From assembly GCA_029881335.1 (NCBI GenBank), contig JAOUMU010000014.1, positions 1 to 39,663 of the forward strand: a stretch of DNA of 39,663 nt, written 5' to 3'. The notes beneath the pieces were generated by a model. It did not search any database and was not told where the DNA came from. It worked only from the letters and a program-made list of their open reading frames with translations. This document shows, piece by piece, positions 3,086-36,535 of this stretch. The stretch comes from Nitrospinota bacterium. Lineage in GTDB: Bacteria > Nitrospinota_A > UBA7883. Each line of letters starts with the position of its first letter. The stretch's first letter is position 1. The translations under genes and the position numbers were made by a program.

Positions 3086-3373
3086 GTGCCGATGAAAAAC
3101 CCGCCGCATCCGGGCCGCTCCATAAAGGACGCCTGTCTGGGACCGCTGAACATGACGGTCACGGAAGGGGCGAAAGCCCTTGGCGTGGCCCGCCACACTC
3201 TTTCCCGCGTCATTAATGGCAAAGCCGGGATTTCACCCGATATGGCTATCCGGCTGGAAAAGGCTTTCGGTGGCACAGCGGACAGCTGGATACGTATGCA
3301 AGCCGCCTACGACCTCGCCCAAGCCAGGCAACATGAAAACAGGATCAACGTAAAACGCTATGCAATGGTCTGA
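3086..3373 (+). CDS. higA: HigA-like antitoxin (XRE-type HTH)
   Basis: 95 residues with the HigA signature: [16 protein letters not shown], then an XRE helix-turn-helix ([26 protein letters not shown]) and [23 protein letters not shown]. HigA binds HigB and represses the shared promoter. I chose GTG 3086 because AGGAG at 3073-3077 is 8 bases upstream; ATG 3092 is the alternative. Its end meets the start of vsr (stop 3373, vsr ATG 3375, or an overlap if vsr starts at 3360). The toxin-antitoxin pair is therefore probably co-transcribed with vsr. Confidence 0.93.
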
Positions 3374-3374
3374 T

Positions 3375-3776: not shown

Positions 3777-3786
3777 ACGAAAAAGA

Positions 3787-3804
3787 CTGTTTACATGTAA
3801 ACAG
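3787..3804. promoter_or_regulatory. 18-bp perfect palindrome, probable operator of the methyltransferase gene
   Basis: CTGTTTACATGTAAACAG is a perfect 9+9 dyad. It overlaps the -35 box of the predicted dcm promoter. The Dcm protein has an N-terminal ribbon-helix-helix-like segment, a fold that binds such dyads as a dimer, so autorepression is the simplest reading. Confidence 0.7.
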
Positions 3805-3818
3805 CCATGCCGTACAGT
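3790..3818 (+). promoter_or_regulatory. Promoter of the methyltransferase gene
   Basis: TTTACA (3790-3795) and TACAGT (3813-3818) are separated by 17 bases; the -10 hexamer is the same as in the higBA promoter. Transcription would start near 3825, downstream of ATG 3807. This supports ATG 3846 as the real start, with a G-rich ribosome site (GGGGGA, about 3832-3837) before it. Confidence 0.6.
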
Positions 3819-3845
3819 AAAGCAGAACATCGGGGGAACAACATT

Positions 3846-5246: not shown

Positions 5247-5251
5247 ACATA

Positions 5252-6106: not shown

Positions 6107-6133
6107 CCAGCTAAACTATATCGGAGAGTCGAC

Positions 6134-7261: not shown

Positions 7262-7262
7262 T

Positions 7263-8936: not shown

Positions 8937-8945
8937 TAGGCGGTC

Positions 8946-15302: not shown

Positions 15303-15331
15303 TGGGGAATTTTATTCCATGGCTGGGGTAA

Positions 15332-15367
15332 GAAAAAGGCCCGCGGCAGGGGGGTGCGCCGCGGGCC
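15332..15367 (-). terminator. Intrinsic terminator after the peroxiredoxin gene
   Basis: On the minus strand a perfect 10-bp GC stem (GGCCCGCGGC / GCCGCGGGCC, arms 15338-15347 and 15358-15367) with a 10-base loop is followed by TTTTTC. Confidence 0.93.
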
Positions 15368-15385
15368 TGGATTAGCCTTGTTAAT

Positions 15386-15970
15386 TCAGGCTATTTTCTT
15401 GAAGAATTCCTGCGATCCACTTGGGTCCGGCTTCATTGTGTCGGCGCCAGGCTTCCAGTCGGCGGGGCACACTTCGCCGGTCTCGTCGGTCTGCTGGATC
15501 GCGGCCAGCACCCGTAGCACCTCTTCCACATTGCGGCCTATGCCCAGGTCGTGGATCAGCTTGAAGCGGATGTTTCCTTCCGGGCCGATGATAAAAAGAC
15601 CACGCAGCGTCATACCGCCGGGGAGAAGGACATCATAATCCGCGCCCACCTGCTTGGTGATATCGGCCAGCAGGGGATAGGATATGTCGCCCAGCCCACC
15701 CTTGTTGCGGGGAGTGTTTATCCACGCCAGGTGGGAAAACTTGCTGTCTACGGAGCTTCCGACCAACTCCGCGCCAAGCTTCTTGAAATCCTCGATCCTG
15801 TCGGAAAAGGCGGTGATTTCCGTGGGACAAACGAAAGTGAAATCGAGCGGATAGAAAAAGAGAACCAGCCATTTCCCCTTGTAGTCGGCGAGGCTGATTT
15901 CCTTGAATTGCTTGTTTACTACAGCTTCCCCTTTAAAATCCGGGGCCTTCGACTGAACCTGTGCGCTCAT
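15386..15970 (-). CDS. Typical 2-Cys peroxiredoxin (AhpC/Prx)
   Basis: 194 residues. It reduces hydrogen and organic peroxides. Peroxidatic C48 lies in [10 protein letters not shown] and resolving C168 in [11 protein letters not shown], giving the typical 2-Cys arrangement with a disulfide between subunits. The C-terminal segment after the resolving cysteine is full length. AGGAG before the ATG supports the start. No reductase gene (ahpF or thioredoxin reductase) is adjacent. It has its own strong promoter with a dyad at the start site and its own terminator, so it is a single-gene unit. Confidence 0.97.
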
Positions 15971-16011
15971 TATATAGCTCTCCTGTTGGAAATTATCAAA
16001 ACATTCCTATA

Positions 16012-16060
16012 ACAGTTCCAAACTGTGGATTCATTATACCAAGAACGTTTCCAAATGCAA
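16012..16060 (-). promoter_or_regulatory. Peroxiredoxin promoter with start-site dyad
   Basis: On the minus strand TTGCAT (16060-16055) and a perfect TATAAT (16038-16033) are 16 bases apart. ACAGTT-CCA-AACTGT (16012-16026), a perfect 6-3-6 dyad, covers the likely start site and is a candidate operator for a stress regulator. Its identity cannot be told from sequence alone. Confidence 0.65.
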
Positions 16061-16123
16061 GACAATTCAATTTTATTACGGCTTTTTCCAAGGGAGCGGA
16101 ATAAAGAGCAGATTGCTTATTCT

Positions 16124-16996
16124 TCAATCAGTTACTAGCGATTCGCCGCAGAGGCTGGCCAAGCCGCAGTCATCACACCTCTGGGAGTCCACCCTGCTGG
16201 AGCAGTATCCCAGCTTCCCGTAGGAGCATATGGCGAAGTCGTAACGGACCGGATCTGCTGGGTCGAGCCTTTTCAGGTATCGGGTCAGCTCCACGGCGGC
16301 CTTCCAGTCGTTGGATTTTCGCCCAAGCATCCCCAGAAATCTGCTGATCCTCCCCACATGGGTGTCCAGGGGGATCACCAGCCGGGAGGTGTCCACTGCG
16401 CCGGACCATGGCCCAGGGTCCACCCCATCCTTTCTGACCATCCAGCGCATGTATAGCATCCACCGCTTGGAGGCGCCCCCATCGGCAGGATCCGTGACCA
16501 GCGTGGGGAAGGCGCCGCTTCCCTCTCCTGCTCGCCGCAACAGCCGGGCCAGGCCGGAAACCCCGGGAAGCACGGTTTCCCCCGATCCATCGCCGTCATG
16601 GGCGACGAAAGCGGCCTGGATAGATCCGTAATCCAGCAATATTTTCCCCACTCCCCGCGTAAGGGCTGTCAGATCCTCGCGGCTGTGGAAACGGTATTTA
16701 AATCCCTTCATCCAGGTTCTGTTGGCGCTTGCCTGAAATGAGGAGCAGAATTTGGCGGGGCTTTTCCCCATGGTCGCCAGGACGGCGGAGACGCTTCTCT
16801 GAATCAGGTCAGCCCGGCCATACGCGAACATGGCGGCAAAGATGGCGGCCGTCTCCAGGTCCCTGGGGTCCTTGTACTGACGAATGGCGGCCAGGGGGTC
16901 CGGCTCCAGAAATGAGAGGTCGAACCTGGCGTAGAGCCCGTCCAGGTGGGGCTTTAACCGGGCGGGATCAGTGATCCTCGTTGGCTTGGAGGCCAT
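16124..16996 (-). CDS. TIGR02757/DUF2400-type protein
   Basis: 290 residues from ATG 16996 (ATG 17029 would add 11). Recognised by the family pattern: a start with LDGLYARFD and DPLAAIRQYKDPRDLETAAIFAAMFAYGRADLI, the middle LYMRWMVRKDGVDPGPW, and IPLDTHVGRISRFLG. The C-terminus holds a Cys-rich end (CSYGKLGYC...CDDCGLASLC) that looks like an iron-sulfur or zinc site. The arrangement recalls helix-hairpin-helix DNA glycosylases, and a role in DNA repair is only a guess. The biochemical function is not known to me. Confidence 0.88.
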   Translation of the reverse strand: MASKPTRITDPARLKPHLDGLYARFDLSFLEPDPLAAIRQYKDPRDLETAAIFAAMFAYGRADLIQRSVSAVLATMGKSPAKFCSSFQASANRTWMKGFKYRFHSREDLTALTRGVGKILLDYGSIQAAFVAHDGDGSGETVLPGVSGLARLLRRAGEGSGAFPTLVTDPADGGASKRWMLYMRWMVRKDGVDPGPWSGAVDTSRLVIPLDTHVGRISRFLGMLGRKSNDWKAAVELTRYLKRLDPADPVRYDFAICSYGKLGYCSSRVDSQRCDDCGLASLCGESLVTD

Positions 16997-19626: not shown

Positions 19627-19920
19627 GACTTGATAATAGCACGGCCGTTCGTGCCGGTCCATTGGCGATTATTTGAGCATTTCCAATACAATCGTTTTTC
19701 CCGGCCTGGCGCCTTTCCAAAAAGTGAACAGTGGCCCTGCGACCATTAATAAGCAATAGACCCATGGGGCGTGACAGGGGCCTGATCAGGGACTTTCAAG
19801 ATCAGCCTTCCCCGGGATGCGCAGAAAGGATATCCACCACGCTAATGCCGCCCCGGATTGCAGTAGTGTCGCTATAGCTATAATTTATGCCGAGAGTATG
19901 GGTGAGACTTTCTAAGGGGG
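19627..19920. other. Intergenic region between nuoN and the TetR gene
   Basis: No convincing gene. Short frames here are antisense fragments. It contains part of the sequence upstream of the TetR gene and leads into the tandem repeat at 19921-20006. Confidence 0.4.
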
Positions 19921-20006
19921 GCGTGGACCCTCTGGAGGGCGCAAACCCTCTGGAGGGCGCAAACCCTCTGGAGGGCGCAAACCCTCTGGAGGGCGTGGAC
20001 CCTCTG
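19921..20006. repeat. 18-bp tandem repeat, about 4.4 copies, beyond nuoN
   Basis: The unit is ACCCTCTGGAGGGCGCAA, with three identical copies (19927-19980), a fourth ending in GCGTGG, and a partial fifth. Each unit holds a CCCTC-TG-GAGGG dyad, so the array can form several hairpins. It ends 19 bases before the nuoN stop codon. It could stabilise the 3' end of the operon mRNA or act as a terminator-like structure; copy number probably varies between strains. Confidence 0.95.
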
Positions 20007-20024
20007 TATGATATTAACCGGCGG

Positions 20025-21478
20025 TCAGGGAGCGAATCCCGATGCCGCAGCCATGGCCAGGTATCCGCCGGGAGTGATCCCCACCAGTACGGAGCCGTAT
20101 ATGGCCACCAGGATGGCAACCACCATTGGGGTGGAGAAAGCGTCTTTCGGCAGAGATTCCCCCTTCTCCGTCCGCATGTACATCACCACCATCACACGCA
20201 AGTAGTAGAACACAGCCACCACAGAGTTTAGCGCCGCCAGTACAGCGAGCCAAACATAACCCTGGTCCAGGGCCGCGGTGAAGAGGTAGTACTTGCCCCA
20301 GAAGCCGGCGGTGGGGGGGATGCCCGCCAGGGAGAAGAGAAGCGCCACCATGGCAAGGCCCAGCAACGGATGGCGATATCCCAGGCCGGTGAAGTCTTCC
20401 ACGTTGGAGCATTCCTCACCTGCGCGGCCCACGATAGTGACGATGGCGAAGGCGCCGATATTCATGAAAGTGTATATCAGCAGATAGAAAAGGGCCGCCG
20501 AAACGCCCATTTTCCCTCCGGCGGTAAAGCCGACCAGAAGATAACCGGCATGGGCTATGGAGGAGTAGGCGAGCATTCTTTTAATATTGGTCTGGTTCAG
20601 GGCGATCAGGTTGGCCACGGTCATGGTGATCAGTGCGAGTATCCACACGATAATCCACCACTGATAATGCAGGGAGATCAACGCTTCCGAGAAAACCCGC
20701 ATGAACGCGGCGAAAGCCGCGGCTTTGGGCCCGGAAGACATGAACGCGGTCACCGGTGTAGGGGCGCCCTGATACACATCCGGCGTCCACATATGGAAAG
20801 GGACGGCGGAGATCTTGAACGCGAAACCGACAAGGAGCAGCCCTCCACCCAGGATAACCAGGTGGATATTGTCCTTGCTCTTGCCGATCACCTGGGCGAT
20901 ATCCCTCAGGCCGGTCTCCCCGGTGGCGCCGTAAATCATCGACATGCCGTATAGCATGAACGCCGACGACAGGGCGCCAAGGATGAAGTACTTCATCGAG
21001 GCCTCGTTGCTGGCCAGCCTTCTGCGAGTATATCCCGCCAGGGCGTAAAGGGAGATCGACATCGTCTCCAGCCCCAGGAATATGGTGATCAGGTCCGCCC
21101 CGGACACCATGAAAAACATGCCGATGGTGGCGAAAAGCAAGAGGGCGTAATACTCGCCGCCGTCGATCCCCTCGTCCTTGATATAGTTCACCGATACCAG
21201 AATCGTCATCCCGGCGCCCAGCAGACACACAAGCTTCACAAACCCGGAGAAATTGTCCACCACATACATTCCGGAGAAGGTGGTCAGGGGAGCGCCAAGC
21301 GACCCGATGACCAGATATCCCGCCACTCCCACCGCGGCCAGTGCTATGTAGGCCAGGTGGTCTTTCCCCTTGTTGGTGGAGAAAACCTCCAGCATGAGGA
21401 TGATCATTGCCGCCACGGCCAGCGTCATCTCCGGGGCGACGGCGCCCAGGTTGATCTCAGGCATAGGTATCCTGTCCA

Positions 21479-21479
<1 letters not shown>
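20025..21479 (-). CDS. nuoN: Complex I subunit N (antiporter-like membrane subunit)
   Basis: 484 residues, about 14 membrane helices. One of the three antiporter-like proton-pumping subunits of NADH:quinone oxidoreductase. Marks: the TM7/8 region KISAVPFHMWTPDVYQGAPTPVTAFMSSG and the downstream helix with LAYSSIAHAGYLLVGF. It is the last gene of the operon. Its ATG overlaps the nuoM stop (TAATG), so translation is coupled. Confidence 0.97.
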
Positions 21480-23161
<1,682 letters not shown>

Positions 23162-23163
23162 TC

Positions 23164-25161
23164 CTACTCCCCGCTCAAGAACATTATCCAGGCCCATACC
23201 AGGACCAGGCAACCGGCAGCCATCACGGTGGCGTAGTTTCGCACCAGCCCCGTCTGGGTCCGGCGGAAAAGACCGCCCAGACCCATGGCCCAGTTGGCGA
23301 CTCCGTTCACCGTTCCATCCACGATCTTCACGTCGAAGAACTTCCATAGCGCTTTTCGGGAAAACGCCACGATCGGGTTGGTGAAAATATAATCGTATAT
23401 CTCGTCCACGTAATATTTGTTCTGTACGGTGACGTATATCGTATGAATGAAACCTTCCTTCCGGGCCAGCTCTTCGGCCGCATCAGGCCGCGACTTATAG
23501 AAGTAATGCGCGGTGAATATCCCCAGGGAGGCCACAGCCACGGAGAACACCATGAATCCAAGCTCCATTTCCCAGCTTATATGATGCCCCCCTTCCACCG
23601 CCTCGCCGTGGCCACCAGCCGCCATCGGATTCAGCACAGGGGAGAGGAAGTCCGAAAGCAGGTGGGGCAAATGCGCCACGGCCGTTGGCAGACCCAAAAA
23701 GCCACCCACTGCAGCCAGAAAAGCAAGGATCATAAGAGGGATCGTCATCACGAATGGCGACTCGTGCACATGGTCGCGCACATGATGATCCTCGGCGCGA
23801 AGCTCGCCGGAAAATGTCATGTAGTAGAGCCGGAACATATAGAACGCCGTCACGAACGCCGCGATGGTGGCTAGCAGCCAGAAGAAGATATGCCCAGGTG
23901 TGGGGCCCATAAAAGCGCTCAGCAGGATCTCGTCCTTGGAGAAAAACCCGGAGAAGACCGGGATGCCCGCAATGGCCAGCGTCGATATCAAGAAGGTCCA
24001 GTGGGTGTGGGGCATTTTCTTTCCCAGTCCGCCCATCTGTCGCATATCCTGCTCACCGCTCATCCCGTGGATCACGGAGCCGGAGCCCAAAAAGAGACAT
24101 GCCTTGAAAAACGCATGGGTCATCACATGGAACACCGCCGCCACATAAGCGCCCACTCCGCAGGCCAGGAACATGTAGCCCAGCTGCGATACGGTGGAAT
24201 AGGCCAGCACTCTTTTGATGTCGTTCTGGAACAGTCCCATGGTGGCCGCGAATATGGCCGTAACCGCCCCCACCGCCGCCACTACTATCATCGTGACGGG
24301 CGCCATGTTGAACAGCACGTTGCACCGCGCCACCATATACACCCCGGCGGTCACCATGGTGGCGGCGTGGATCAACGCGGAGACCGGTGTGGGGCCCTCC
24401 ATGGCGTCCGGCAGCCAGGTGAACAGCGGAATTTGCGCCGATTTGCCCGTGGCGCCCAGGAAGAGGAACAGCGTGATGAGCGTCACCACCGTAAGACCAC
24501 CCCATCGGGTGTGCCGCATAAGCTCCTCGGAGTGGGGCGCGGCGGCGAACACCGTGGTGTAGTCGATCGAACCGAGGGTCCAGAATATCCACATTATGGC
24601 CAGCAGAAACCCGAAGTCCCCGATGCGGTTCATGATGAAGGCCTTCTTTCCCGCGTCGGCGGCCGAATCTTTCTTATAGTAATAGCCGATGAGCAGGTAT
24701 GAGCAAAGACCCACTCCCTCCCAGCCGATGAACATCAAAAGGAAGTTGTTCCCCATCACCAGAAGCAGCATGGAGAACATGAACAGGTTCAGGTAGCAAA
24801 AGAACCTGGGGTACGCGTCTTCATCCCCCATGTATCCCACGGAGTATACGTGGATCAGAAATCCAACTCCGGTGACGATCAGCATGAAAAGCCCGGAGAG
24901 GGGATCGATCTGGATGCCAGCCTCCGCCGTGAAAGACCCGGCCTGGATCCATGTGAAGAGGACTTTTTCAAACACCCTCTCTGAGGGCGCCATGGATACC
25001 AGGTTGGCAAACGCCAGCAGAGCTATTGCCAATGAGAGACCGGTGGTCCCCAGGGCCCATAAGGTGGTCCACACCTTCCCCATCCGATAGCCGAACAGCC
25101 CGCTCATCAACGCGCCAACGAGCGGCAGAATCGGAACCAGCCAGATGTTATCCAGACCCAT
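23164..25161 (-). CDS. nuoL: Complex I subunit L (largest antiporter-like subunit)
   Basis: 665 residues, about 16 membrane helices. Marks: LLMFIGWEGVGLCSYLLIGYYY near the front, IPLFTWLPDAMEGPTPVSALIHAATMVTAGVYM, and VLAYSTVSQLGYMFLA. The C-terminal part contains the long lateral helix that runs along the membrane arm and a final hydrophobic anchor. Start MGLDNIWLVPILP is clear, preceded by the nuoK stop 14 bases away. No sign of truncation. Confidence 0.97.
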   Translation of the reverse strand: MGLDNIWLVPILPLVGALMSGLFGYRMGKVWTTLWALGTTGLSLAIALLAFANLVSMAPSERVFEKVLFTWIQAGSFTAEAGIQIDPLSGLFMLIVTGVGFLIHVYSVGYMGDEDAYPRFFCYLNLFMFSMLLLVMGNNFLLMFIGWEGVGLCSYLLIGYYYKKDSAADAGKKAFIMNRIGDFGFLLAIMWIFWTLGSIDYTTVFAAAPHSEELMRHTRWGGLTVVTLITLFLFLGATGKSAQIPLFTWLPDAMEGPTPVSALIHAATMVTAGVYMVARCNVLFNMAPVTMIVVAAVGAVTAIFAATMGLFQNDIKRVLAYSTVSQLGYMFLACGVGAYVAAVFHVMTHAFFKACLFLGSGSVIHGMSGEQDMRQMGGLGKKMPHTHWTFLISTLAIAGIPVFSGFFSKDEILLSAFMGPTPGHIFFWLLATIAAFVTAFYMFRLYYMTFSGELRAEDHHVRDHVHESPFVMTIPLMILAFLAAVGGFLGLPTAVAHLPHLLSDFLSPVLNPMAAGGHGEAVEGGHHISWEMELGFMVFSVAVASLGIFTAHYFYKSRPDAAEELARKEGFIHTIYVTVQNKYYVDEIYDYIFTNPIVAFSRKALWKFFDVKIVDGTVNGVANWAMGLGGLFRRTQTGLVRNYATVMAAGCLVLVWAWIMFLSGE

Positions 25162-25175
25162 TATCTATTCGCCCC

Positions 25176-25475
25176 CTATCCTTTCATCGAATTCACTTCG
25201 TCCACGTCCACCGTCTCCCGGTTGCGGAACATGGCCAGCACCACAGCCAGCCCCACGGCCGCCTCCGCCGCCGCCACCGCGATCACCATGAATACGAAGA
25301 GGTGGCCCGTCATATCGTGCCGGTAGTTGGCAAAGGTAATGAAGCTCAGGTTCGCGGCGTTGAGCATCAGCTCTATGCACATCATCACCACTATCATATT
25401 CCTGCGGATCAGCACACCCACCGCGCCTATGACGAAAAGCGCCGCGGAGAGTATCAGGTAATAATTCATCATCAT
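25176..25475 (-). CDS. nuoK: Complex I subunit K
   Basis: 99 residues, three membrane helices. It carries the two conserved membrane glutamates of the proton pathway, one in MMCIELMLNAANLSF and the other in AAAEAAVGLAV. The first two methionines (MMMNYY) leave the exact start open. It follows nuoJ after 7 bases and precedes nuoL, the usual order. Confidence 0.96.
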   Translation of the reverse strand: MMMNYYLILSAALFVIGAVGVLIRRNMIVVMMCIELMLNAANLSFITFANYRHDMTGHLFVFMVIAVAAAEAAVGLAVVLAMFRNRETVDVDEVNSMKG

Positions 25476-25482
25476 GGCGCGC

Positions 25483-25980
25483 CTACCTCATCCTTATCTT
25501 CACAAGGGCCACCGCCCCCACCAGCGCGGCCAGCAGGAGCACCGAGGTTATCTCAAATGGCAGGATGTATCTGGTGAACAGCAGCCTGCCAACCTCCGCC
25601 GTGGTCCCGAAACGGTCGCTGGCCAGCACAGCCGGGCTTGACGGCATACTGGTCAACCCCACGGCGGCAACCAGCACCACAAACGCCATCGCCCCGCCGA
25701 ACATCTGCGCGTAACCCTTGGTGTGGGACTCCATCCCTTCCTTCTCCCGCAGGTTCAGCAGCATTATCACAAAGAGGAACAGGACCATAATCGCTCCGGC
25801 GTATACCAGTATCTGCAGGATGGCGATCAGGTGCGCGCTCTGAATGGCGAACAGCACCGCCAGGCAGAACATAACTCCCACCAGGCTCATGGCCGAGGTC
25901 ACCGGCTTTCTGGCCAGGACCATGACGACGCTCAAGAACACCGAAATCCCGCCTGCCACTATGAATACCGCCATCTCCAT
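25483..25980 (-). CDS. nuoJ: Complex I subunit J
   Basis: 165 residues from ATG 25980; the longer frame to 26049 overlaps nuoI and is not the start. Five hydrophobic helices, with the conserved helix 3 stretch ILQILVYAGAIMVLFLFVIMLLN that undergoes the pi-bulge change in the enzyme cycle. Part of the E-channel of the membrane arm. Family length is normal. Confidence 0.96.
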   Translation of the reverse strand: MEMAVFIVAGGISVFLSVVMVLARKPVTSAMSLVGVMFCLAVLFAIQSAHLIAILQILVYAGAIMVLFLFVIMLLNLREKEGMESHTKGYAQMFGGAMAFVVLVAAVGLTSMPSSPAVLASDRFGTTAEVGRLLFTRYILPFEITSVLLLAALVGAVALVKIRMR

Positions 25981-25984
25981 AGCT

Positions 25985-26560
25985 TTACCTGTACCTTTCC
26001 TCTGAAAAATACTTGTTCCTGATGGTGTCGAGCCTTCTTTGCAGCTCACGCCGGGGAACCAGCAGGCTCTCCTTGTCGTAAATCATTTTCGATCTGTCAT
26101 ATTCACATAAGCCCTGAAACCTGTCGCTCATCACTATCGCCTCTTTCGGGCATACTTCCTCGCAGAAACCGCAATATATGCACCGGGTTCCATCCAGGGT
26201 ATAGCTCACCGGGAAGCGCTCCCCGTTATCGCGTTCCCCGCCGATTATCGATATACACGACGGAGGGCAGGCCGCCTCGCACAGCCCGCAAGCCACGCAA
26301 GCCTCCAGCCCGTCATCCCGGCGCACCAGCACAGGCTTCCCCCGATAAGCAGGCGGGATCTCCGGATACTCCTCCGGATAGAACAGCGTCATCACCCGGC
26401 GCTTGCTTTTCCCAGCCAATATCTCTTCGAAAAAGCCGAGCATATTCACAGCCGAATGCCTTACCGCCACCCACATCCCATGAAGCATGTAGGGAATATA
26501 CATACGCTCCAGGAACGTCATGGTCACGTTCCGGTCGACTTTTTTAATGTTTATCGCCAC
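25985..26560 (-). CDS. nuoI: Complex I subunit I (two 4Fe-4S clusters)
   Basis: 191 residues. Two ferredoxin motifs, CVACGLCEAACPPSC and CIYCGFCEEVCPKEA, bind clusters N6a and N6b, which pass electrons toward N2. The N-terminal amphipathic helix attaches to the membrane (MTFLERMYIPYMLHGMW). It lies 10 bases downstream of nuoH. No irregularities. Confidence 0.97.
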   Translation of the reverse strand: MAINIKKVDRNVTMTFLERMYIPYMLHGMWVAVRHSAVNMLGFFEEILAGKSKRRVMTLFYPEEYPEIPPAYRGKPVLVRRDDGLEACVACGLCEAACPPSCISIIGGERDNGERFPVSYTLDGTRCIYCGFCEEVCPKEAIVMSDRFQGLCEYDRSKMIYDKESLLVPRRELQRRLDTIRNKYFSEERYR

Positions 26561-26570
26561 TTCTATCTCC

Positions 26571-27695
26571 TCACGGGGTCGGCATTACGCCGGTGAGTAT
26601 CCCGACACCCACCAGGAATATCCAGCACAGCGACAGGGGAAGGATCATCTTCCACCCGAGTTTCATTATCTGGTCATAGCGAAACCGCGGCATGGTCCAT
26701 CGGATCGTCATCTGCAGCACCAGCAGGATGACAAGCTTCGTGATGAACACCCCAACGCCGATCAACATCACCACCACTCCGCCCCAGTCCGGGCCAAAGA
26801 TATCGCCCAGGGCGGTGAGCAGGAATTTTTGTGTTAAAAAGGGAATATGGTGCCCCCCCAAAAACAGCGCAACGCACATGCCGGAGATGCTCACCATCTC
26901 TATGAACTCGGCGGTCCAGAACATCACGAACTTCATTCCGGAATATTCAGTGAAATACCCGGCCACCAGTTCCGACTCCGCCTCCGGCGCGTCGAAGGGC
27001 ACCCTCTTATTTTCCGCCACGGCGCAGGCCAGGAAGAGTACGAACGCAGGGAAATGCCATATGATCCCCCAGTGCCAGAAGTTTTCCTGCTTGGCCACTA
27101 TATCCACCAGGCTCAGGCTCTGATAATACATGATGAGCCCGATTACGGTGAGCCCCATGGTCACCTCGTAGGAGAACATCTGCGCCGACGCCCGAAGCCC
27201 CCCCAACAGCGACCAGTTATTGTTGGACGACCAGCCCGCGATAACGACGCCATATGTGGCCAGGCTGCTGATCGCGAAGACGTAGAGCAACCCCACATCC
27301 AGGTCCGCGATAACAAGGTTCACATCCAGGCCCCACAGCGTGTATTGCCCGCCGAAGGGGATCACCGCGAACACCACCAGCGCCGGGATCACCGCAAGAG
27401 CGGGCGCCAGTGTGTGCAGCCCTCTCTCCGCTCCCCGGGGGATGAAGTCCTCCTTGAATATCAGCTTTATGGCGTCCGCCAGCGAGTGCAAAAGCCCGAT
27501 AACCGTAAAACCGAAAACACCGGCGCGGTTTGCGCCCACCCGGTCCTGCATCACGGCAGACTGCTTCCGCTCCACCCACGCCAGCATAGGCGCGAAAAAG
27601 CCAATGGTCAGGCCGAAGATGAAACCTATCTTCACCATGGTGACGATAAACTCAATGACCATCGGGTTTTTTATCAGGGCTATCACTGTCTCCAT
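26571..27695 (-). CDS. nuoH: Complex I subunit H
   Basis: 374 residues from ATG 27695, in a TGATG overlap with the nuoD stop. Eight membrane helices; it forms part of the quinone chamber and the link to the membrane arm. Marks: FAPMLAWVERKQSAVMQDRVGANRAG near the front, a segment with EAESELVAGYFTEYSGM, and the MTIRWTMPRFRYDQIMKLGWK tail. The conserved acidic residues in these loops are present. Confidence 0.97.
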   Translation of the reverse strand: METVIALIKNPMVIEFIVTMVKIGFIFGLTIGFFAPMLAWVERKQSAVMQDRVGANRAGVFGFTVIGLLHSLADAIKLIFKEDFIPRGAERGLHTLAPALAVIPALVVFAVIPFGGQYTLWGLDVNLVIADLDVGLLYVFAISSLATYGVVIAGWSSNNNWSLLGGLRASAQMFSYEVTMGLTVIGLIMYYQSLSLVDIVAKQENFWHWGIIWHFPAFVLFLACAVAENKRVPFDAPEAESELVAGYFTEYSGMKFVMFWTAEFIEMVSISGMCVALFLGGHHIPFLTQKFLLTALGDIFGPDWGGVVVMLIGVGVFITKLVILLVLQMTIRWTMPRFRYDQIMKLGWKMILPLSLCWIFLVGVGILTGVMPTP

Positions 27696-28909
27696 CAACG
27701 GTCGCACTCCCCGCCGATCAGGTTGATCATGTCAAAAGTGGGGATCAGGTCCGCCAGCAACGACCCTTTCACCAGAAGCGGCAACGCGGAGGTGAGCGCG
27801 AAACTGGGCGGCCTCACCCGGCATTTCCACGGTTTTCCGCCGCCGTTGGACACCAGGTAGTATCCCAGCTCGCCGTTGGCGCCTTCCACCGCCTGGTACG
27901 CCTCACCCACCGGGATGGAGGGACCCTCGATCACCTGCTTGAAGTGGAATATCAGCGGCTCCATTCTGGTGGAGGAATCGTCCTTGGAAGGCATGCGCCA
28001 TCGCGCGTCGTCCACGTTGATCGGCCCCTCCGGCATCTGCGCCAGGCACTGTTCCACGATGCTCATCGATTGCTTTATCTCCTCCATCCGCACCAGGTAC
28101 CGGTCGAAGTTATCGCCGGTGGTCCCCACGGGGATGTCGAAATTCATCCTGTCGTACACAAGGTATGGCTGGGCGCGCCGCACATCGTATGGCACGCCGG
28201 TGGCCCGCAGGCAGGGGCCCGTGAAACCCCACGCGATGGCGTCCTTTTGCGATATGCCGCCTGTATCACGCATCCTGTCCAGGAAGATGCGGTTCTTGGT
28301 GAGCATGATGTCGAAATCGTCCCACAGCTTCCTGTTCTTTGCGAAGACGCGCTTCACATTTTCCCGAAATCCATCCGGCAGGTCGTTGGTCAGCCCGCCG
28401 ATGCGCACATAGTTGTGGGTCAGCCTGGCGCCGCAGACCGACTCGATCAGATCCCACAAAAGCTCGCGAGCCTCTATGAAGTATATGAACGCCGTCAGTG
28501 CGCCCAGCTCCAGGGCTCCGGCGCCCACGTTGGTGTAGTGTCCGCTCATCCGGGCCATTTCGCTGATCATGGTCCGCAGGTACTGGCATCGCTCCGGGAC
28601 CTCTATGCCGATCAGTTTCTCCGCCGCCATGGCGTAGCCCACGTTGTTCAAAACGCTGGCGGTGTAGTCCAGCCTGTCTGTGTATGGGAAGACCCCGTTC
28701 CACTTCTGCGCCTCGCACTCCTTTTCAAAAGCTCGGTGCAGGTAGCCGATTTCCACATCGATATCCTCGATGGTCTCCCCGTCCAGGGTCAGGAAAAACT
28801 TAACCGTACCATGGGTGGCCGGGTGGCTTGGCCCCATGTTTATGGTCATGGTCTCGGTGCGGCTCGCCTCGTGGAAGTCGTAGCCCTTTTCCCTGTTTTC
28901 TTCCTTCAT
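27695..28909 (-). CDS. nuoD: Complex I subunit D (49 kDa type)
   Basis: 404 residues. Hydrogenase-like subunit forming the quinone site with NuoB. Marks: MGPSHPATHGTVKF at the front with the quinone-binding histidine, YLHRAFEK, YTDRLDYTASVLNNVGYA, and the C-terminal PSFALTSALPLLVKGSLLADLIPTFDMINLIGGECDR, listed here by its ends. The start (MKEENREKG) is likely; it is separate from nuoC, not fused. Coupled to nuoH by overlap. Confidence 0.97.
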   Translation of the reverse strand: MKEENREKGYDFHEASRTETMTINMGPSHPATHGTVKFFLTLDGETIEDIDVEIGYLHRAFEKECEAQKWNGVFPYTDRLDYTASVLNNVGYAMAAEKLIGIEVPERCQYLRTMISEMARMSGHYTNVGAGALELGALTAFIYFIEARELLWDLIESVCGARLTHNYVRIGGLTNDLPDGFRENVKRVFAKNRKLWDDFDIMLTKNRIFLDRMRDTGGISQKDAIAWGFTGPCLRATGVPYDVRRAQPYLVYDRMNFDIPVGTTGDNFDRYLVRMEEIKQSMSIVEQCLAQMPEGPINVDDARWRMPSKDDSSTRMEPLIFHFKQVIEGPSIPVGEAYQAVEGANGELGYYLVSNGGGKPWKCRVRPPSFALTSALPLLVKGSLLADLIPTFDMINLIGGECDR

Positions 28910-28918: not shown

Positions 28919-29482
28919 CTAGTTCACCGGCCCGATCAAGGGCTGGCGTTTCATCTTTCCGTAATCCTTGCGCAACGGATGGCCCACAAAATCCTCGTAC
29001 AACAATATCCTTTTCAGGTTCGGATGGCCACGGAACATAACACCGTAAAGGTCCCACGCCTCCCGTTCGAACCAGTCCGCCCCCACCCATATCCCGGTGA
29101 CAGAGTCCACATAAGGGCTATCCTCCGGCAACGGGACCTTCACCCGGATCCGGTGGTTTTTCTCCACGGAGTAAAGGTGGTACACCACCTCGAATCGCGC
29201 ATTCATCGGCTTGAGGTACGGATGCACCTCCTCCGCCCCCAGGTAGTCCACCACCGTCAGGTCCATCATCATGTCAAACTTCAGGCTTTTGTCATCGCGT
29301 AGGAACTCCATCACCTTCAGGACATCCTCCGCGTGCGCCACCAGCGTGTCATCACCATGCTGGCTATGAGTGTGTATCATCACCCCCATCGGCCCCAGCA
29401 CCGCCTTGGTCCTGGCCAACACCTCCGAATCGGAGGCGCCCTGCCCTCTCCTCTTTTCTTCGTTCATCTCCATGGCGCCCAT
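28919..29482 (-). CDS. nuoC: Complex I subunit C (30 kDa type)
   Basis: 187 residues from ATG 29482, which overlaps the nuoB stop (TGATG); internal ATGs at 29473 and 29467 are alternatives. Marks: MDLTVVDYLGAEE, the family signature WFEREAWDLYGVMFRGHPNLKRILLYEDFVGHPLRKDY, cited by its ends. The protein links the hydrophilic arm subunits near the quinone site. It precedes nuoD, 9 bases apart. Confidence 0.96.
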   Translation of the reverse strand: MGAMEMNEEKRRGQGASDSEVLARTKAVLGPMGVMIHTHSQHGDDTLVAHAEDVLKVMEFLRDDKSLKFDMMMDLTVVDYLGAEEVHPYLKPMNARFEVVYHLYSVEKNHRIRVKVPLPEDSPYVDSVTGIWVGADWFEREAWDLYGVMFRGHPNLKRILLYEDFVGHPLRKDYGKMKRQPLIGPVN

Positions 29483-30045
29483 CAGCCTATTATTTTCCTG
29501 TCGTCCGCCTCGCCCAGGGGCGATACACCGCGTGTCATATTTATATTCGGCTCGCGCGCCACCTTCTGCTGCAGCATTATCAGTCCGTCTAGCACCATCT
29601 CCGGCCGGGGGGGGCAGCCGGGCACATACACATCCACCGGCACCAGCGTATCGATCCCCTGCACGGTGGCGTAGTTGTTGTACATCCCGCCGGAAACCGT
29701 GCAGCTGCCATAAGCGAACACCCATTTGGGCTCGGCCATCTGGTTGTACACCTTCACCAATATGGGCGCCTGCTTGTGGCTGATAGTCCCCACCACCATC
29801 ATCAGGTCCGCCTGCCGGGGGGAGAACCTGGGCAACGCCGCGCCGAACCGATCGATATCATACCGGGGGCCGGCAACGCTCATGAACTCCATGCCACAGC
29901 ACGCCGTGATGAAGGGGTATAGGAAAAAGCTGTATTGGCGTCCCCAGCTCACTAGCCTGGATAGCTGGGTGATTATCACAGAATCGGAGAGCGCCGCTAT
30001 CTCGCCTGGGGTCACTTCTTCTGTCGGTCGCTCTTTGTGCGCCAT
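29482..30045 (-). CDS. nuoB: Complex I subunit B (20 kDa type, cluster N2)
   Basis: 187 residues from ATG 30045, chosen because GGGAG lies 8 bases upstream; ATG 30060 would overlap nuoA. Ligands of the N2 cluster: the adjacent cysteines in ITACCGMEF, then GSCTVSGG and GCPPRPE. N2 hands electrons to quinone. Length is normal, and the protein sits between nuoA and nuoC as usual. Confidence 0.97.
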   Translation of the reverse strand: MAHKERPTEEVTPGEIAALSDSVIITQLSRLVSWGRQYSFFLYPFITACCGMEFMSVAGPRYDIDRFGAALPRFSPRQADLMMVVGTISHKQAPILVKVYNQMAEPKWVFAYGSCTVSGGMYNNYATVQGIDTLVPVDVYVPGCPPRPEMVLDGLIMLQQKVAREPNINMTRGVSPLGEADDRKIIG

Positions 30046-30050
30046 TTCGT

Positions 30051-30407
30051 CTACTCCCATTCCAGCGCCCCCTTCTTCCACACATACACCAGCCCCACCG
30101 TCAGGATGGCAATGAAGATCATCATCTCCACGAAACCGAACAGCCCCAGGGGCTGGAAAACCACCGCCCATGGAAACAGGAACACAGCCTCAATATCGAA
30201 AATGATAAACATCATCGCCACCAGGTAGAACCGGACGGAAAACCTCCGTTTCGGCGACACTATCTGGTTCTCGCCGCATTCGAAAGGCTCCATCTTCTCC
30301 CGGAACCTCAGCTTGGGGCCCAACAGCTCTGAAAGACCCAGCATGGCCAGAGCCACACCTGCGCCGACAGCGAACATCAGCAGTATGGGAATATACTGGT
30401 TCATCAT
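30051..30407 (-). CDS. nuoA: Complex I subunit A
   Basis: 118 residues from ATG 30407 (MMNQYIPILL; the second ATG at 30404 is also possible). Three membrane helices and the conserved loop EPFECGENQ, which contains the cysteine that moves between enzyme states. A GGGG-rich ribosome site lies upstream. First of the membrane-arm genes, 75 bases downstream of nuoG, the largest gap in the operon. Confidence 0.97.
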   Translation of the reverse strand: MMNQYIPILLMFAVGAGVALAMLGLSELLGPKLRFREKMEPFECGENQIVSPKRRFSVRFYLVAMMFIIFDIEAVFLFPWAVVFQPLGLFGFVEMMIFIAILTVGLVYVWKKGALEWE

Positions 30408-30482: not shown

Positions 30483-32972
30483 TCAGGCCCTCCTTATCCG
30501 CGCCGCGGTGGCGCCATGTCCACGCTCCACCAGGCTCATCGCCGGAGCGTTCTCAAATCCCTTCGCCATATATACCACCCCTTTGGGCGGCCGACCATTC
30601 ACCCGCGCCACCGCCCGCACAGAACCGAGCGCCGATTCCACATTCACATCGTCGCCGTCGGCGATGCCCCCTTCCGCCGCGTCCTGGGAGCTGATCTCCA
30701 CGAATGCCGCAGGCTCTATCGTATTGAGCGCCGCGCTGGCCCTGGAAAGCGAATCAAGATGGAAAAGAGAGTTTCCCGTCAACATCAGCATCGGGAAATC
30801 CTCGCTTCGCGCGTCTTTGGTTTTCCCCTTGTCGAACTTGAAAACGGGAGGCGCATCGCTAGGATAAGAGACAAACACGTCTCCCGAGACCAGGTTAGCC
30901 GTCGTCAATTCCTTGTATCCCTTCACGGAGGCGGCTATCTCCTCGGTGATCCGTGCGGTGGAGCTATAGGTCCTCACCAGCCCGAACCGCTTCCCCAACT
31001 CCTGGAATATTTCCCATTCCGGTTTAGAATCGGTGGTGGGAGTCACCACTCTGGAAAAGCCCTGGGGCCTCCCTTCGTTGTTTGTATACGTCCCATCCTT
31101 CTCCACGCTCACGCAGGCGGGCAGGACAATGTGGGCCATATCGGATGTCGGGGTGCTGAAAGAATCCACCACCGCCAGGTACTCCGCCTTTCCCATCGCA
31201 TTCATCGTCGCGGGACCATTGGGGAAATGGGTGGCCGGATCCGCGCCCACCACCAGAAGGCCTTTCACCTTGCCCGATTCCAGAGCGGTGAATATATCCT
31301 CCTCCCTCGCGAACAGGGGGTCGAGTTCCAGGCCCCACATGGCGGCGTAATGGGCCGCCGCGTCCGGGTCTTCCACTCCGGCGTATCCCGGGAAGTTGGC
31401 CGGGGAGAGGCCCATGTCGTTGGTCCCCTGGGTGTTGGCGTATTCCCGATACAAAAGCGTCCATCCATTCAGCTTGGCGGCCAGGGCCATTAGCGCCGCC
31501 ATGATGTTTTCCGAGTTCGGATGGTCGTGAATTTCCTTGCCTATGAAGATAAGGGGCGAACCATGACCGGCCAGCGCGATGGCCATTTTCGCCACAGCGT
31601 CTTTATCCTCCCGCGGATCCGCCAGTGCCGCCGCCAGCTCCACCTCGGCGCCGTAGTCGTATAGAATCCTGGCCATGGGATGCGGCATGAAACCTACGTT
31701 CCTGCTATTGGCCACATACAGGCTGGTTCCCTTGTCGCGCATCACCACCCTGGCCATATTTGCGATCACAGGATTTTCATTCTCCATGTCGCAACCAAAG
31801 GAGAGGAAGCAGCCGGCCTTTTCCATCATGGAATATGGGATCACCGGCGCCGACGCGCCATATGTTTTAAAGAGCCCACTGTTGAGCTTTCTATTGCGCA
31901 TGTTCGACAATGTGTCGATCCTGTTCACTCCCAGCCCCGCGCGGAACACCTTCTGCAATATATAGGCGTCCTCGTTGGTCAACCGCTCGCCTGCGATCAC
32001 AGCCACGCTATCCGGCCCGTTCTTCTCCACTATAGCCCGGAATTTACCCGCCACCTCGTCCAGAGCCGCATCCCAGGCCATCTTTCTGGGTCCGCCGCCG
32101 GGGCGGGATTCGGGCGACGCCAACCGATCCTTGCTCTGGTATGCCTGCAGGCCGAACCTGCCCCTGGCGCACAGGTTTCCGTCGTTCACCCCCACGCCAT
32201 CCACGGAGGAGATTCGGGCCACCATGTTATTTTTCGTCTCCACCGAAAGGGAGCATCCCACGGCGCAATGAGAGCATATGGACCTGACTCGCCCCACTTC
32301 CCAACTGCGCGCCGGAAGCACCACCCCGGAATTTAGCGCCCCAACGGGGCAAACGGATACGCACTGGCCACAGAAATCGCAATCTAGCGGCTCACCGTTC
32401 TGAGTGTTTATCTTCGCCTTTATCCCTGTGCCGTCTATTTTGTAAGCGGAGACCCCCTGGATCTCGTGGCATATCCTCACACACCGCTCGCACATGACGC
32501 AAAGGTTGCGGTCGTACCGGATAACGCCCCAGTCCGCCACTTTCTGCTTTTCATGCTCGGTGGTGAAGAATAATTGATCCGCCACGTTGAACTCCATGGT
32601 GCGGTTCTGCAGGGAGCATTCTCCGCTCCGCTCGCACACGGGGCAGTCCAAGGGGTGATTCACCAGGATAAAACGGATCATCTGCTGTCGATATCGCCGG
32701 ATCAGGTCTGTGTCCGTGCGAACCTGCATGCCATCAACCACGGGAGTGACGCAGCTCATCACGGGGCCGGAGTTGCCCTCCACTTCCACGGAGCATACCC
32801 GACAGGAGCCGATGGGGTTCAGTTTTTTCAGGTAGCAAAGGGTGGGGATATGCACACCATTTGCGGTGGCCACTTCCAGGATGGTGTCCCCGCCTCGGGC
32901 TTCCACATTTTTGCCGTCGAGGACCAGTTTCACTCTGGCGTTCTTTCCCGTGGCCGCAGTCGACTTTGCCAT
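30483..32972 (-). CDS. nuoG: Complex I subunit G (Fe-S/molybdopterin-type)
   Basis: 829 residues from ATG 32972 (GGGGAG 6 bases upstream). A 2Fe-2S ferredoxin domain (C46, C57, C60, C74) is followed by cluster N5 ligands (H106, C110, C113, C119), two 4Fe-4S motifs (C158-C168 and C198-C208) and the N7-type site (C233, C236, C240, C268). A long molybdopterin oxidoreductase-like domain completes it. Presence of N7 ligands and a long C-terminus is the form seen in many bacteria and in SfrA of Geobacter. It starts two bases after the NuoF-like stop and would receive electrons directly from it. Confidence 0.95.
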   Translation of the reverse strand: MAKSTAATGKNARVKLVLDGKNVEARGGDTILEVATANGVHIPTLCYLKKLNPIGSCRVCSVEVEGNSGPVMSCVTPVVDGMQVRTDTDLIRRYRQQMIRFILVNHPLDCPVCERSGECSLQNRTMEFNVADQLFFTTEHEKQKVADWGVIRYDRNLCVMCERCVRICHEIQGVSAYKIDGTGIKAKINTQNGEPLDCDFCGQCVSVCPVGALNSGVVLPARSWEVGRVRSICSHCAVGCSLSVETKNNMVARISSVDGVGVNDGNLCARGRFGLQAYQSKDRLASPESRPGGGPRKMAWDAALDEVAGKFRAIVEKNGPDSVAVIAGERLTNEDAYILQKVFRAGLGVNRIDTLSNMRNRKLNSGLFKTYGASAPVIPYSMMEKAGCFLSFGCDMENENPVIANMARVVMRDKGTSLYVANSRNVGFMPHPMARILYDYGAEVELAAALADPREDKDAVAKMAIALAGHGSPLIFIGKEIHDHPNSENIMAALMALAAKLNGWTLLYREYANTQGTNDMGLSPANFPGYAGVEDPDAAAHYAAMWGLELDPLFAREEDIFTALESGKVKGLLVVGADPATHFPNGPATMNAMGKAEYLAVVDSFSTPTSDMAHIVLPACVSVEKDGTYTNNEGRPQGFSRVVTPTTDSKPEWEIFQELGKRFGLVRTYSSTARITEEIAASVKGYKELTTANLVSGDVFVSYPSDAPPVFKFDKGKTKDARSEDFPMLMLTGNSLFHLDSLSRASAALNTIEPAAFVEISSQDAAEGGIADGDDVNVESALGSVRAVARVNGRPPKGVVYMAKGFENAPAMSLVERGHGATAARIRRA

Positions 32973-32974: not shown

Positions 32975-34948
32975 TCAGCTCCCCGCCCCGTTGGCCACGC
33001 AGGCCATCCCCACGATGTAACACCTCATGCAACGCGACGCTTCTTCCATGGCCTGCTGCTGGGTGTATCCCAATTCCACTTCCGAAAAGCTGTTATGCTT
33101 CAGGTCCGGATCACATATAGGCATCGGCTGCCGCTCCCACCCTTTCGGGTAGTTGGGGATCGCTTCGTTTTTATTGTATGCTCCGATCCTCTTTATAACT
33201 CTTTCCATTATCTGGTCGTCGGAAAGGCGCACCTCCTCGCCCCGCAGGAACTGCCCGATGCTCTGGGCCGCCAGCCGGGCCTGGCCCACGGCGTCCACCA
33301 AAGTGGCGGGGCCTGTCATGCAGTCCCCCCCGGCGAAGACATCCTTCACTTCCTGGCTTTGCAAGGTGACCTCATCCACCACCGGGTTGTCCCACTTGGT
33401 GATCTTTATATTCGGGTCTTCTTTCAGGTAGAAGATATCGCAATCCTGCCCTATGGCGGACATGATGCAATCCGCCTCTATGACATGCTCCGAGCCCTTC
33501 ACGGGCACTGGCCTTCTTCGCCCGGAGTCGTCCGGCTCGCCCAGTTCCATCTTTTGGCTCTCCAGCCCCGTCACCTTGCCGTCTTGGGCAACGATCCTTG
33601 TAGGGGCCTCCAGGAACATATACTCGACGCCTTCCTCCAGCGACTCGGCGTACTCGTGCGGATCGCAGGGCAGCTCCTTGGCCGTGCGGCGATATACCAC
33701 GGTGACCTTGCTGCCCAGTCGGCGAAAGGTGCGGGCGCAGTCCATGGCTGTGTTTCCACCGCCCACCACCAGCGCGTGCTTGCGCTTGGGGATATCCCCC
33801 TCCTTGAGTTTTATCTGGCGGAGTATTTCGATCCCACCGTACAGTCCGTCGTAGCCCTTATCCTCACCCTCGACCCGCATCGCCTTTGACAGGTCGCCCC
33901 CGGTGCCAAGGAAAAACGCCTTGTAACCCTGGCCCCGAAGGCTCTTGAAGGTCTCGTCCTTGCCGAACTGGACGCCGAATTTGAACTCTACTCCCAGACT
34001 TTCCACATAGCGCCATTCCCGCTCCAGGATCTCGTTTGGCACCCGATATTGCGGGATGCCGCTGAAAACGGCCCCGCCGGCGCCTTTCAGCTTTTCGAAT
34101 ATGGTGACCCGGAAACCTTGCAGCGCCAGGTAGTAGGCGCAGGAGATCCCGGCCGGCCCGCCGCCGATGATGGCCACCTTTTCCTGGCGGGTGTGTTTAG
34201 TTGGGTTTGACGGCGGCTGTACATCGTGCTGGTCCTCCCAGTCCCAGGCGAACCTTTTGAGCTTGCAGATGGCAAGCGAAGTTTCCACATTGCTTCTTCG
34301 GCAGCTGTTTTCGCAGGGATGAAAGCACGCCCGGCCCAAGGAGTTGGCCATGGGGCTGGCCTGGCGGATGGTCCGCAACGAGCCTAGCGGGTCCTCTTCC
34401 TTGATCTGCTCTATATACAGCGGGATGTCCATCCCGGTGGGGCAGGCGGAGGTGCAAGGCGCGGTCATCTTGTATGGATAGTGGAGGTTCGGCCTTTTTT
34501 TGCCACCGGAGATATAGGCCTGGTACTCCTCCTTGAAGAATCCCAGGGTGTCCGCTATGGGGCCTGGTCCGAGTTGACCGATGCCGCATTTGGAGTTGTC
34601 CGTGACGGTTTTGCATAGGACCTCCAGGCGGGTGAGGTCTTCTTCGCTCCCCTTCCCCTCCAGAATCTTGAGGAGCAGATCCTCCATGACCTTGGTGCCC
34701 ACCCTGCAAGGGAAGCATTTGGCGCAGGAGCACTCCTGTAGCGCCTTGGCGTAGCTGTAGGCCATCTCGACGATATCGTAAGGCTCTTTGAGCACCACCA
34801 CACCGCCCCAGCCGATGAACGCCGTCATATCCCTTTTGCCATCAAAGGACTCTGGCAGCTTTACTCCGGGACAATCATCCCATGAGTCGGCTTTCTTGCC
34901 TCGGTTGTCTATAGTGGTTCCCAGCCAGGAACTAAATAAAAGCTTCAT
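32975..34948 (-). CDS. NuoF C-terminal / GltD-type fusion (SfrB-like), electron entry of complex I
   Basis: 657 residues. Residues about 46-140 match only the C-terminal part of NuoF: GGVVVL, the N3-type cluster CAKCFPC (C75, C78, C81) and C121 in SKCGIGQ. The Rossmann domain that binds FMN and NADH in normal NuoF is absent. Residues about 160-230 carry Cys motifs (C165, C169, C208, C212, C216) like GltD. FAD site IGGGPAGISC (261-270) and a second dinucleotide site VVGGGNTAMDC with VVYRR follow, typical of NAD(P)H-dependent glutamate synthase small subunits. The last 20 residues hold CMRC. Overall form matches SfrB of the Geobacter NADPH oxidoreductase. It opens the nuo operon; no nuoE is present. 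NADPH rather than NADH may be the donor, by inference. Confidence 0.92.
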   Translation of the reverse strand: MKLLFSSWLGTTIDNRGKKADSWDDCPGVKLPESFDGKRDMTAFIGWGGVVVLKEPYDIVEMAYSYAKALQECSCAKCFPCRVGTKVMEDLLLKILEGKGSEEDLTRLEVLCKTVTDNSKCGIGQLGPGPIADTLGFFKEEYQAYISGGKKRPNLHYPYKMTAPCTSACPTGMDIPLYIEQIKEEDPLGSLRTIRQASPMANSLGRACFHPCENSCRRSNVETSLAICKLKRFAWDWEDQHDVQPPSNPTKHTRQEKVAIIGGGPAGISCAYYLALQGFRVTIFEKLKGAGGAVFSGIPQYRVPNEILEREWRYVESLGVEFKFGVQFGKDETFKSLRGQGYKAFFLGTGGDLSKAMRVEGEDKGYDGLYGGIEILRQIKLKEGDIPKRKHALVVGGGNTAMDCARTFRRLGSKVTVVYRRTAKELPCDPHEYAESLEEGVEYMFLEAPTRIVAQDGKVTGLESQKMELGEPDDSGRRRPVPVKGSEHVIEADCIMSAIGQDCDIFYLKEDPNIKITKWDNPVVDEVTLQSQEVKDVFAGGDCMTGPATLVDAVGQARLAAQSIGQFLRGEEVRLSDDQIMERVIKRIGAYNKNEAIPNYPKGWERQPMPICDPDLKHNSFSEVELGYTQQQAMEEASRCMRCYIVGMACVANGAGS

Positions 34949-35133: not shown

Positions 35134-36535
<1,402 letters not shown>

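What the first reader, a model, noticed from the sequence alone, without database searches (positions are those of the whole stretch)
32975..34948. Complex I operon without nuoE and with a SfrB-like fusion replacing NuoF
The first gene keeps only the C-terminal 4Fe-4S part of NuoF and continues as a GltD-type flavoprotein. No NuoE gene and no FMN/NADH Rossmann domain are in the operon. Together with the N7-type NuoG it looks like a SfrAB-type NADPH oxidoreductase module attached to an otherwise complete Nuo core. This implies a different electron donor (NADPH, or reverse flow from quinol to NADP) and perhaps bifurcation.
Basis: partly seen in the sequence, partly recalled or inferred. Interest (0 to 1): 0.82.

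Follow-up and report, generated by a model that had tools for sequence, protein, structure and literature searches.

The report
Complex I with swapped NADPH input module
In this uncultured Nitrospinota bacterium the respiratory proton pump complex I has lost the part that normally oxidises NADH and carries instead a flavin protein built to handle NADPH, an arrangement that recurs in several bacterial phyla and, among close relatives, has been exchanged in place together with the docking half of the neighbouring subunit.

Summary
Window 32975-34948(-) encodes 657 aa: the C-terminal N3 [4Fe-4S] domain of NuoF, then a two-cluster GltD/NfnL-type FAD and NADP(H) flavoprotein (SfrB architecture). 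It is followed by nuoG and nuoABCDHIJKLMN. The genome has no other NuoE/NuoF candidate except HoxEF of a [NiFe]-hydrogenase.

The fusion is the electron-input subunit of complex I. (a) The operon is conserved in 17 of 24 Nitrospinota genomes. (b) Five order-mates carry a HydB/BfuB-like FMN NuoF at the same site (obg-X-nuoG), and only these five have a stand-alone nuoE. (c) The complex I core interleaves both types, while the NuoG N-terminal Fe-S domain segregates strictly with the input subunit. The exchange therefore included half of nuoG (breakpoint near residue 230-250). (d) The same architecture occurs in Campylobacterota and Thermodesulfobacteriota: 45 of 72 full-length homologues lie in complex I operons.

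Donor NADPH is inferred: SfrB homology, invariant Arg-Arg, NADP(H)-binding structural neighbours, PntAB and Rnf/Nqr absent. Reverse flow to NADP+ is plausible but untested. Bifurcation inside this complex is not supported. No held paper describes this variant, but only open-licence papers were searchable. New variant of a known kind.

The parts
32975..34948 (-). SfrB-like fusion, 657 aa: electron-input flavoprotein in place of NuoE+NuoF
34517..34765 (-). N3 [4Fe-4S] domain (residues 62-144; Cys75, 78, 81, 121), the NuoG-docking part of NuoF
   Evidence: PF10589 E 3.5e-22; Cys conservation
34226..34465 (-). Fer4_20 domain (residues 162-241; Cys165, 169 and Cys208, 212, 216), two [4Fe-4S] clusters
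   Evidence: PF14691; Cys invariant in 72 of 72
33278..34180 (-). FAD and NADP(H) Rossmann domains (residues 257-557; GxGxxG 262-267, GxGxxA 396-401, Arg420-Arg421)
   Evidence: PF07992; NfnL, StnC and NfnA as nearest solved structures
33014..33133 (-). C-terminal RCMRCY segment (residues 606-645), homologous to the N-terminal CxxC segment of NfnL: circularly permuted ligands Cys640, 643 of a Fer4_20 cluster
30483..32972 (-). NuoG, 829 aa from ATG at 32972; Fe-S clusters N1b, N4 region (8 Cys), N5, N7
32268..32972 (-). N-terminal Fe-S domain of NuoG (about residues 1-235), exchanged together with the input subunit
30051..30407 (-). NuoA
29482..30060 (-). NuoB (start uncertain)
28919..29480 (-). 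NuoC (start uncertain)
27695..28909 (-). NuoD
26571..27707 (-). NuoH
25985..26560 (-). NuoI (N6a/N6b)
25483..25980 (-). NuoJ (start uncertain)
25176..25475 (-). NuoK
23164..25161 (-). NuoL
21479..23165 (-). NuoM (start uncertain)
20025..21479 (-). NuoN
35134..36192 (-). obg, conserved upstream neighbour that marks the site (obg - input gene - nuoG) in both module types

Best explanation
The 657-aa protein is the electron-input subunit of a 13-subunit respiratory complex I. Its N3 domain docks on the N-terminal Fe-S domain of NuoG where NuoF normally sits, and its NfnL/GltD-type part oxidises NADPH, or reduces NADP+ when the pump runs backwards. Proposed path: NADPH - FAD - two [4Fe-4S] - N3 - N1b - N4 - N5 (NuoG) - N6a/b (NuoI) - N2 (NuoB) - quinone, coupled to ion pumping by NuoH-N. 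Shown here: domain anatomy, ligand residues, operon, absence of another NuoEF, exchange with NuoF+NuoE at the same locus, co-segregation with the NuoG N-terminus. Inferred: NADP(H) specificity, cluster path, physical assembly, direction.
For: Anatomy and cluster ligands. AF2 model pLDDT 86, nearest solved folds NfnABC-A, StnC and NfnL, the last solved with NADP(H) bound. Conserved operon in class. Same obg-X-nuoG site holds a BfuB/HydB-like FMN NuoF in G004, G006, G007, G009, G010; exactly these five have a stand-alone NuoE, next to atpE, and no fusion genome has one. G012, G018 and G021 (92-98% complete) have no N3 domain other than the fusion's. Core tree forces at least 4 label changes, E-type as one clade rejected p-AU 3e-89; NuoG N-terminus separates types on a 2.64 branch, C-terminus follows the core; identity profile locates the breakpoint. 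Arg420-421 in 72 of 72, GxGxx(A/S). PntB absent in 23 of 24 and NqrB/RnfD in 24 of 24 genomes. SfrB2 is assigned as beta subunit of the purified NADP-dependent formate dehydrogenase of Moorella (PMC13040438).
Against: No expression, purification or activity data; nicotinamide specificity rests on homology and motif. The window genome is a 92% complete MAG in 199 contigs. Electron input from a ferredoxin or flavodoxin directly into NuoG is not excluded.
Confidence: 0.76

Rival explanations
1. The fusion and NuoG form a soluble SfrAB-like NADPH oxidoreductase that is merely co-transcribed with a headless 11-subunit complex I.
For: SfrAB without nuo genes exists in Geobacterales and others (Geomonas L072, Desulfuromusa L071); 11-subunit complex I is common (PMC11238625).
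Against: The NuoG C-terminal domain follows the complex I core and is interchangeable between genomes whose input subunit is an FMN NuoF; the gene order is kept in many phyla with the fusion between nuoD and nuoG; no free-standing NuoF or NuoE is left to serve complex I.
Confidence: 0.1
2. An electron-bifurcating complex I: NADPH oxidation split between quinone and ferredoxin, or confurcation.
For: The FAD domain is NfnL-like and keeps the Arg (R302) that aligns with NfnL R201; order-mates use a BfuB-like NuoF in the same slot, the type proposed to confurcate in Geobacter Nuo-Bfu (PMC9304861).
Against: No NfnS and no BfuB/BfuC in the operon; a separate NfnAB-like pair exists in the genome (C44); StnC, with the same fold and the same Arg, is reported not to bifurcate (PMC10482914).
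Confidence: 0.07
3. The input subunit works with NADH, or with both nicotinamides, so that the swap changes structure but not donor.
For: The organism has no other visible NADH:quinone pump (no Nqr/Rnf), and flavoproteins of this group can show mixed use (general knowledge).
Against: Invariant Arg-Arg after the second Rossmann beta-strand, GxGxx(A/S) motif, NADP(H)-bound NfnL as a close structural match, NADPH use reported for SfrAB and the SfrB2-containing formate dehydrogenase.
Confidence: 0.12

Closest known systems
SfrAB (NADPH:Fe(III)/NADPH oxidoreductase, Geobacter)
   Same: SfrB: same domain order (N3 domain, Fer4_20, FAD/NADPH domains, C-terminal CxxCY); full-length 40-43% identity to Geobacterales homologues; next to a NuoG-like partner
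   Different: SfrAB is a stand-alone pair without nuo genes; here the partner is the NuoG of a full complex I operon. The Geobacterales members shown have Gly for the third N3 Cys, the window protein has Cys
Canonical 14-subunit complex I (NuoA-N)
   Same: NuoA, B, C, D, G, H-N all present; N7 motif in NuoG
   Different: NuoE absent; FMN/NADH domain of NuoF absent; 13 genes
Nuo-Bfu (Geobacter and others, PMC9304861)
   Same: Complex I with an exchanged input module; the E-type order-mates carry a BfuB-like NuoF in the same slot
   Different: The window complex lacks BfuB and BfuC; single NADPH-type flavin
StnABC / Nfn-Bfu (NfnABC)
   Same: GltD-like FAD/NADPH domain feeding a NuoG-like Fe-S chain; best structural match
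   Different: Soluble bifurcating transhydrogenases with BfuBC; GltD is fused into NuoG, not to the N3 domain of NuoF
NADP-dependent formate dehydrogenase of Moorella (SfrB2-SfrA2-FdhF3, PMC13040438)
   Same: SfrB-type subunit as NADP(H) input on a NuoG/FdhF-like partner
   Different: Soluble formate dehydrogenase, no membrane arm
Epsilonproteobacterial Nuo (NuoXY in place of NuoEF; PMC6682613) and Nitrospina NUO-2 (PMC3578206)
   Same: Complex I with a non-canonical or altered input end
   Different: Proposed flavodoxin or ferredoxin partners; the window protein has complete FAD/NADP(H) domains

Membership tests
Respiratory complex I (14-subunit type) | NuoBCD, NuoI and membrane subunits NuoAHJKLMN | tested here: met
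Respiratory complex I (14-subunit type) | NuoG with N1b, N4, N5 (and N7) ligands | tested here: met
Respiratory complex I (14-subunit type) | NuoF with FMN/NADH domain (PF01512) | tested here: not met
Respiratory complex I (14-subunit type) | NuoE (PF01257) | tested here: not met
   only HoxE in the genome
SfrB family | N3 domain + Fer4_20 + FAD/NADP domains + C-terminal CxxCY in one chain | tested here: met
SfrB family | Adjacent NuoG-like partner (SfrA) | tested here: met
SfrB family | NADPH (not NADH) oxidation | not testable with these tools
   motif support only
SfrAB complex | Soluble two-subunit enzyme encoded outside complex I | tested here: not met
   embedded in nuo operon; solubility itself not testable
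Bfu (HydABC-type bifurcating) family | BfuB (FMN, B2-B5 clusters) and BfuC | tested here: not met
NfnAB | NfnS partner with [2Fe-2S] (PF10418) | tested here: not met
   none in the operon; a separate NfnAB-like pair on C44
11-subunit complex I | No NuoG and no input module | tested here: not met
   NuoG and fusion in the operon

The most novel reading that the evidence does not exclude
A dedicated NADP(H)-linked complex I that in these sulfur-oxidising, putatively autotrophic Nitrospinota runs mainly in reverse: quinol electrons are lifted by the proton motive force to NADP+, and the separate NfnAB then bifurcates NADPH to ferredoxin and NADH for the reverse TCA cycle. This would fill the 'yet unknown ferredoxin-reducing' gap noted for non-Nitrospinia Nitrospinota (PMC10839748). 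Input modules (NADPH-type, or FMN/Bfu-type NuoF with nuoE) are exchanged between lineages as a unit that includes the N-terminal half of NuoG.
Probability: 0.3. Interest if true: 0.85.

Novelty: new variant of a known kind. Interest (0 to 1): 0.72.

Why it matters
Complex I is textbook NADH dehydrogenase. A widespread form with an NADPH-type input would change predicted electron flow, NADPH balance and ATP yield in several phyla where annotation calls it 'NADH-quinone oxidoreductase' (Nitrospinota, Campylobacterota, Thermodesulfobacteriota). The Nitrospinota order gives a natural experiment: the same core with two interchangeable heads, and a recombination point inside nuoG that delimits the transferable input module. 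This bears directly on how complex I acquired its N-module and on how autotrophs with high-potential donors obtain NADPH.

Tried and rejected
Separate NuoEF elsewhere: only HoxEF; the 442-aa PF01512 protein on C148 is RnfC/PduS-like in a microcompartment locus. Assembly artefact: rejected, same fusion and order in 17 genomes and in named MAGs. Order-mates thought to have ordinary NuoEF: corrected, their gene is a HydB/BfuB-like NuoF and nuoE lies elsewhere. Several translations failed on wrong frames. The Sulfurimonas denitrificans genome paper (10.1128/AEM.01844-07) is not held. A two-chain fusion-NuoG model could not be run. R302, the residue aligned with NfnL R201, is present but does not discriminate, because StnC has it too.

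Full report
What is there. The ORF at 32975-34948(-) encodes 657 aa. Pfam gives NADH_4Fe-4S at 62-144, Fer4_20 at 162-241 and Pyr_redox_2 at 257-557; the FMN/NADH domain of NuoF (PF01512) is absent, and the NuoF model of NCBIfam is matched only at its last 114 positions. It is followed by NuoG (829 aa, ATG at 32972) and by A, B, C, D, H, I, J, K, L, M, N, ending at 20025. The upstream gene is obg. There is no nuoE.

Genome. The window is one contig of a 3.09 Mb MAG, 91.85% complete. The MAG code NC_54_26 is placed in class UBA7883 by PMC10839748; I take the window to be of that phylum and probably that class. Searches for the N3 domain, NuoE and the FMN domain in the own genome find only a fused HoxEF beside HoxU- and HoxY-like genes, and an RnfC/PduS-like protein in a microcompartment locus.

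Conservation. 17 of the 24 nearest genomes encode the fusion at 62-92% identity (the own copy excepted); wherever the contig is long enough it precedes nuoG and nuoABCDHIJKLMN. G012, G018 and G021 (92-98% complete) have the fusion and no other N3 domain.

A module exchange in place. In five order-mates (G004, G006, G007, G009, G010) the same site holds a 604-633 aa protein instead. The G007 copy, checked in detail, has an N-terminal region with a Cys pattern like the [2Fe-2S] domain of HydB (read by eye), the FMN domain, N3 and two C-terminal [4Fe-4S] motifs. That is HydB/BfuB-like, as in the Nuo-Bfu proposed for Geobacter (PMC9304861). These five, and no fusion-bearing genome, have a stand-alone NuoE of 170-202 aa, which lies next to atpE; the atpE-ffh region of the window genome and of G001 and G008 shows no nuoE. 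(G003 has a 145-aa NuoE-like protein, but in a formate-dehydrogenase-type cluster.) The core (A-D, H-K, M, N; 2710 columns) interleaves the two types: at least four changes are forced by well-supported branches, and one clade for the FMN type is rejected (p-AU 3e-89). The NuoG N-terminal 225 residues separate the types on a branch of 2.64 changes per site, whereas the C-terminal domain again interleaves them. Window by window, the window NuoG is 52-73% identical to fusion-type NuoG of another order but 22-51% to FMN-type NuoG of its own order over residues 41-240; from about 240 onward its identity to the two types within the order is similar and it falls for the other order. The exchanged unit is therefore input subunit plus NuoG N-terminus, with nuoE gained or lost in step. 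This is the strongest evidence here that the fusion works with NuoG inside complex I. The tree searches were of the quick kind.

Wider distribution. Of 72 full-length homologues, 45 lie in complex I operons; the loci include Nitrospinota, 22 of Campylobacterota (plus one partial locus), Thermodesulfobacteriota, and MAGs labelled Deltaproteobacteria or Bacteroidales. In the non-Nitrospinota loci the usual place is between nuoD and nuoG. Free forms beside a NuoG-like gene (SfrAB) are found in Geobacterales and relatives. The label changes 6-8 times on the tree, so recruitment or loss was repeated. Two rows counted as free (L037, L038) are only contig ends.

Mechanism. Cys75, 78, 81 and 121 can bind N3. 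Cys165, 169, 640, 643 and Cys208, 212, 216 can bind the two Fer4_20 clusters; assignment to individual clusters is inferred. The C-terminal segment is homologous to the N-terminal segment of NfnL, a circular permutation. FAD and NADP(H) motifs and Arg420-421 are invariant or nearly so. AF2 gives pLDDT 86; the nearest solved structures are subunit A of NfnABC, StnC and NfnL. In StnC this FAD passes electrons from NADPH to the cluster chain and does not bifurcate (PMC10482914). In Moorella, SfrB2 is assigned as the beta subunit of the purified NADP-dependent formate dehydrogenase (PMC13040438). I infer NADPH - FAD - 2 x [4Fe-4S] - N3 - N1b - N4 - N5 - N6 - N2 - quinone. PntB is missing from 23 of 24 genomes and NqrB/RnfD from all 24, so this complex is a candidate link between the NADP and quinone pools. 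DsrA-like genes above the curated cut-off are found in 18 of 24 genomes, the own included, and PMC10839748 describes reverse-DSR sulfur oxidation and rTCA autotrophy in these classes. A separate NfnAB-like pair on C44 could turn NADPH into reduced ferredoxin and NADH. Reverse operation is a hypothesis.

Known or new. None of the held papers found in ten searches describes a SfrB-like subunit in complex I; PMC10839748 treats the NUO-1 of Nitrospinota as canonical, and Campylobacterota papers speak of NuoXY or NuoEF. Subscription papers, including the Sulfurimonas denitrificans genome paper, could not be read, so prior mention is possible. I file it as a new variant of complex I, built from two known parts.

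Noticed in passing
L039, L040, L043 (for example L040:13406-14878 and 15150-16907): In some fusion-type Nitrospinota (G013, G015, G022) canonical NuoL is replaced by two divergent NuoL/Mrp-like antiporters between nuoK and nuoM (490 and 585 aa in L040), that is one extra pump-type subunit.
   Followed up: partly
L048, L049, L050: In other phyla a full-length NuoF-type protein (with FMN domain) is fused to the GltD-type part (1013-1042 aa) beside nuoE and nuoG; in L050 it precedes nuoABCD-nuoG.
   Followed up: no
alignment of 72 SfrB-like proteins (not in the window protein): The third N3 cysteine is Gly in 31 of 72 homologues, including about half of those in complex I operons and the Geobacterales SfrB examples; the cluster may have another ligand or be altered there.
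   Followed up: partly
G000 contig C148, L141:1153-5829: Microcompartment locus: two BMC-domain proteins, an aldehyde dehydrogenase-like ORF and an RnfC/PduS-like protein in a Nitrospinota MAG.
   Followed up: partly
G000 contig C44, L154:2211-5372: NfnAB-like pair whose small subunit carries an N-terminal HEAT-repeat extension.
   Followed up: partly
window 3360-10175 (+): Vsr-like endonuclease, C5-cytosine methylase, SNF2 helicase and several ORFs without Pfam or PADLOC match: probable restriction or phage-defence island.
   Followed up: partly
window 19915-19998: Short tandem repeat (about CGCCCTCCAGAGGGTTTG, four to five copies) just downstream of nuoN.
   Followed up: no
L144 (G023): More distant same-phylum genome: a broken, 39% identical GltD-type fragment directly upstream of nuoABCDH without nuoG between them; may be a decayed or rearranged form.
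   Followed up: no
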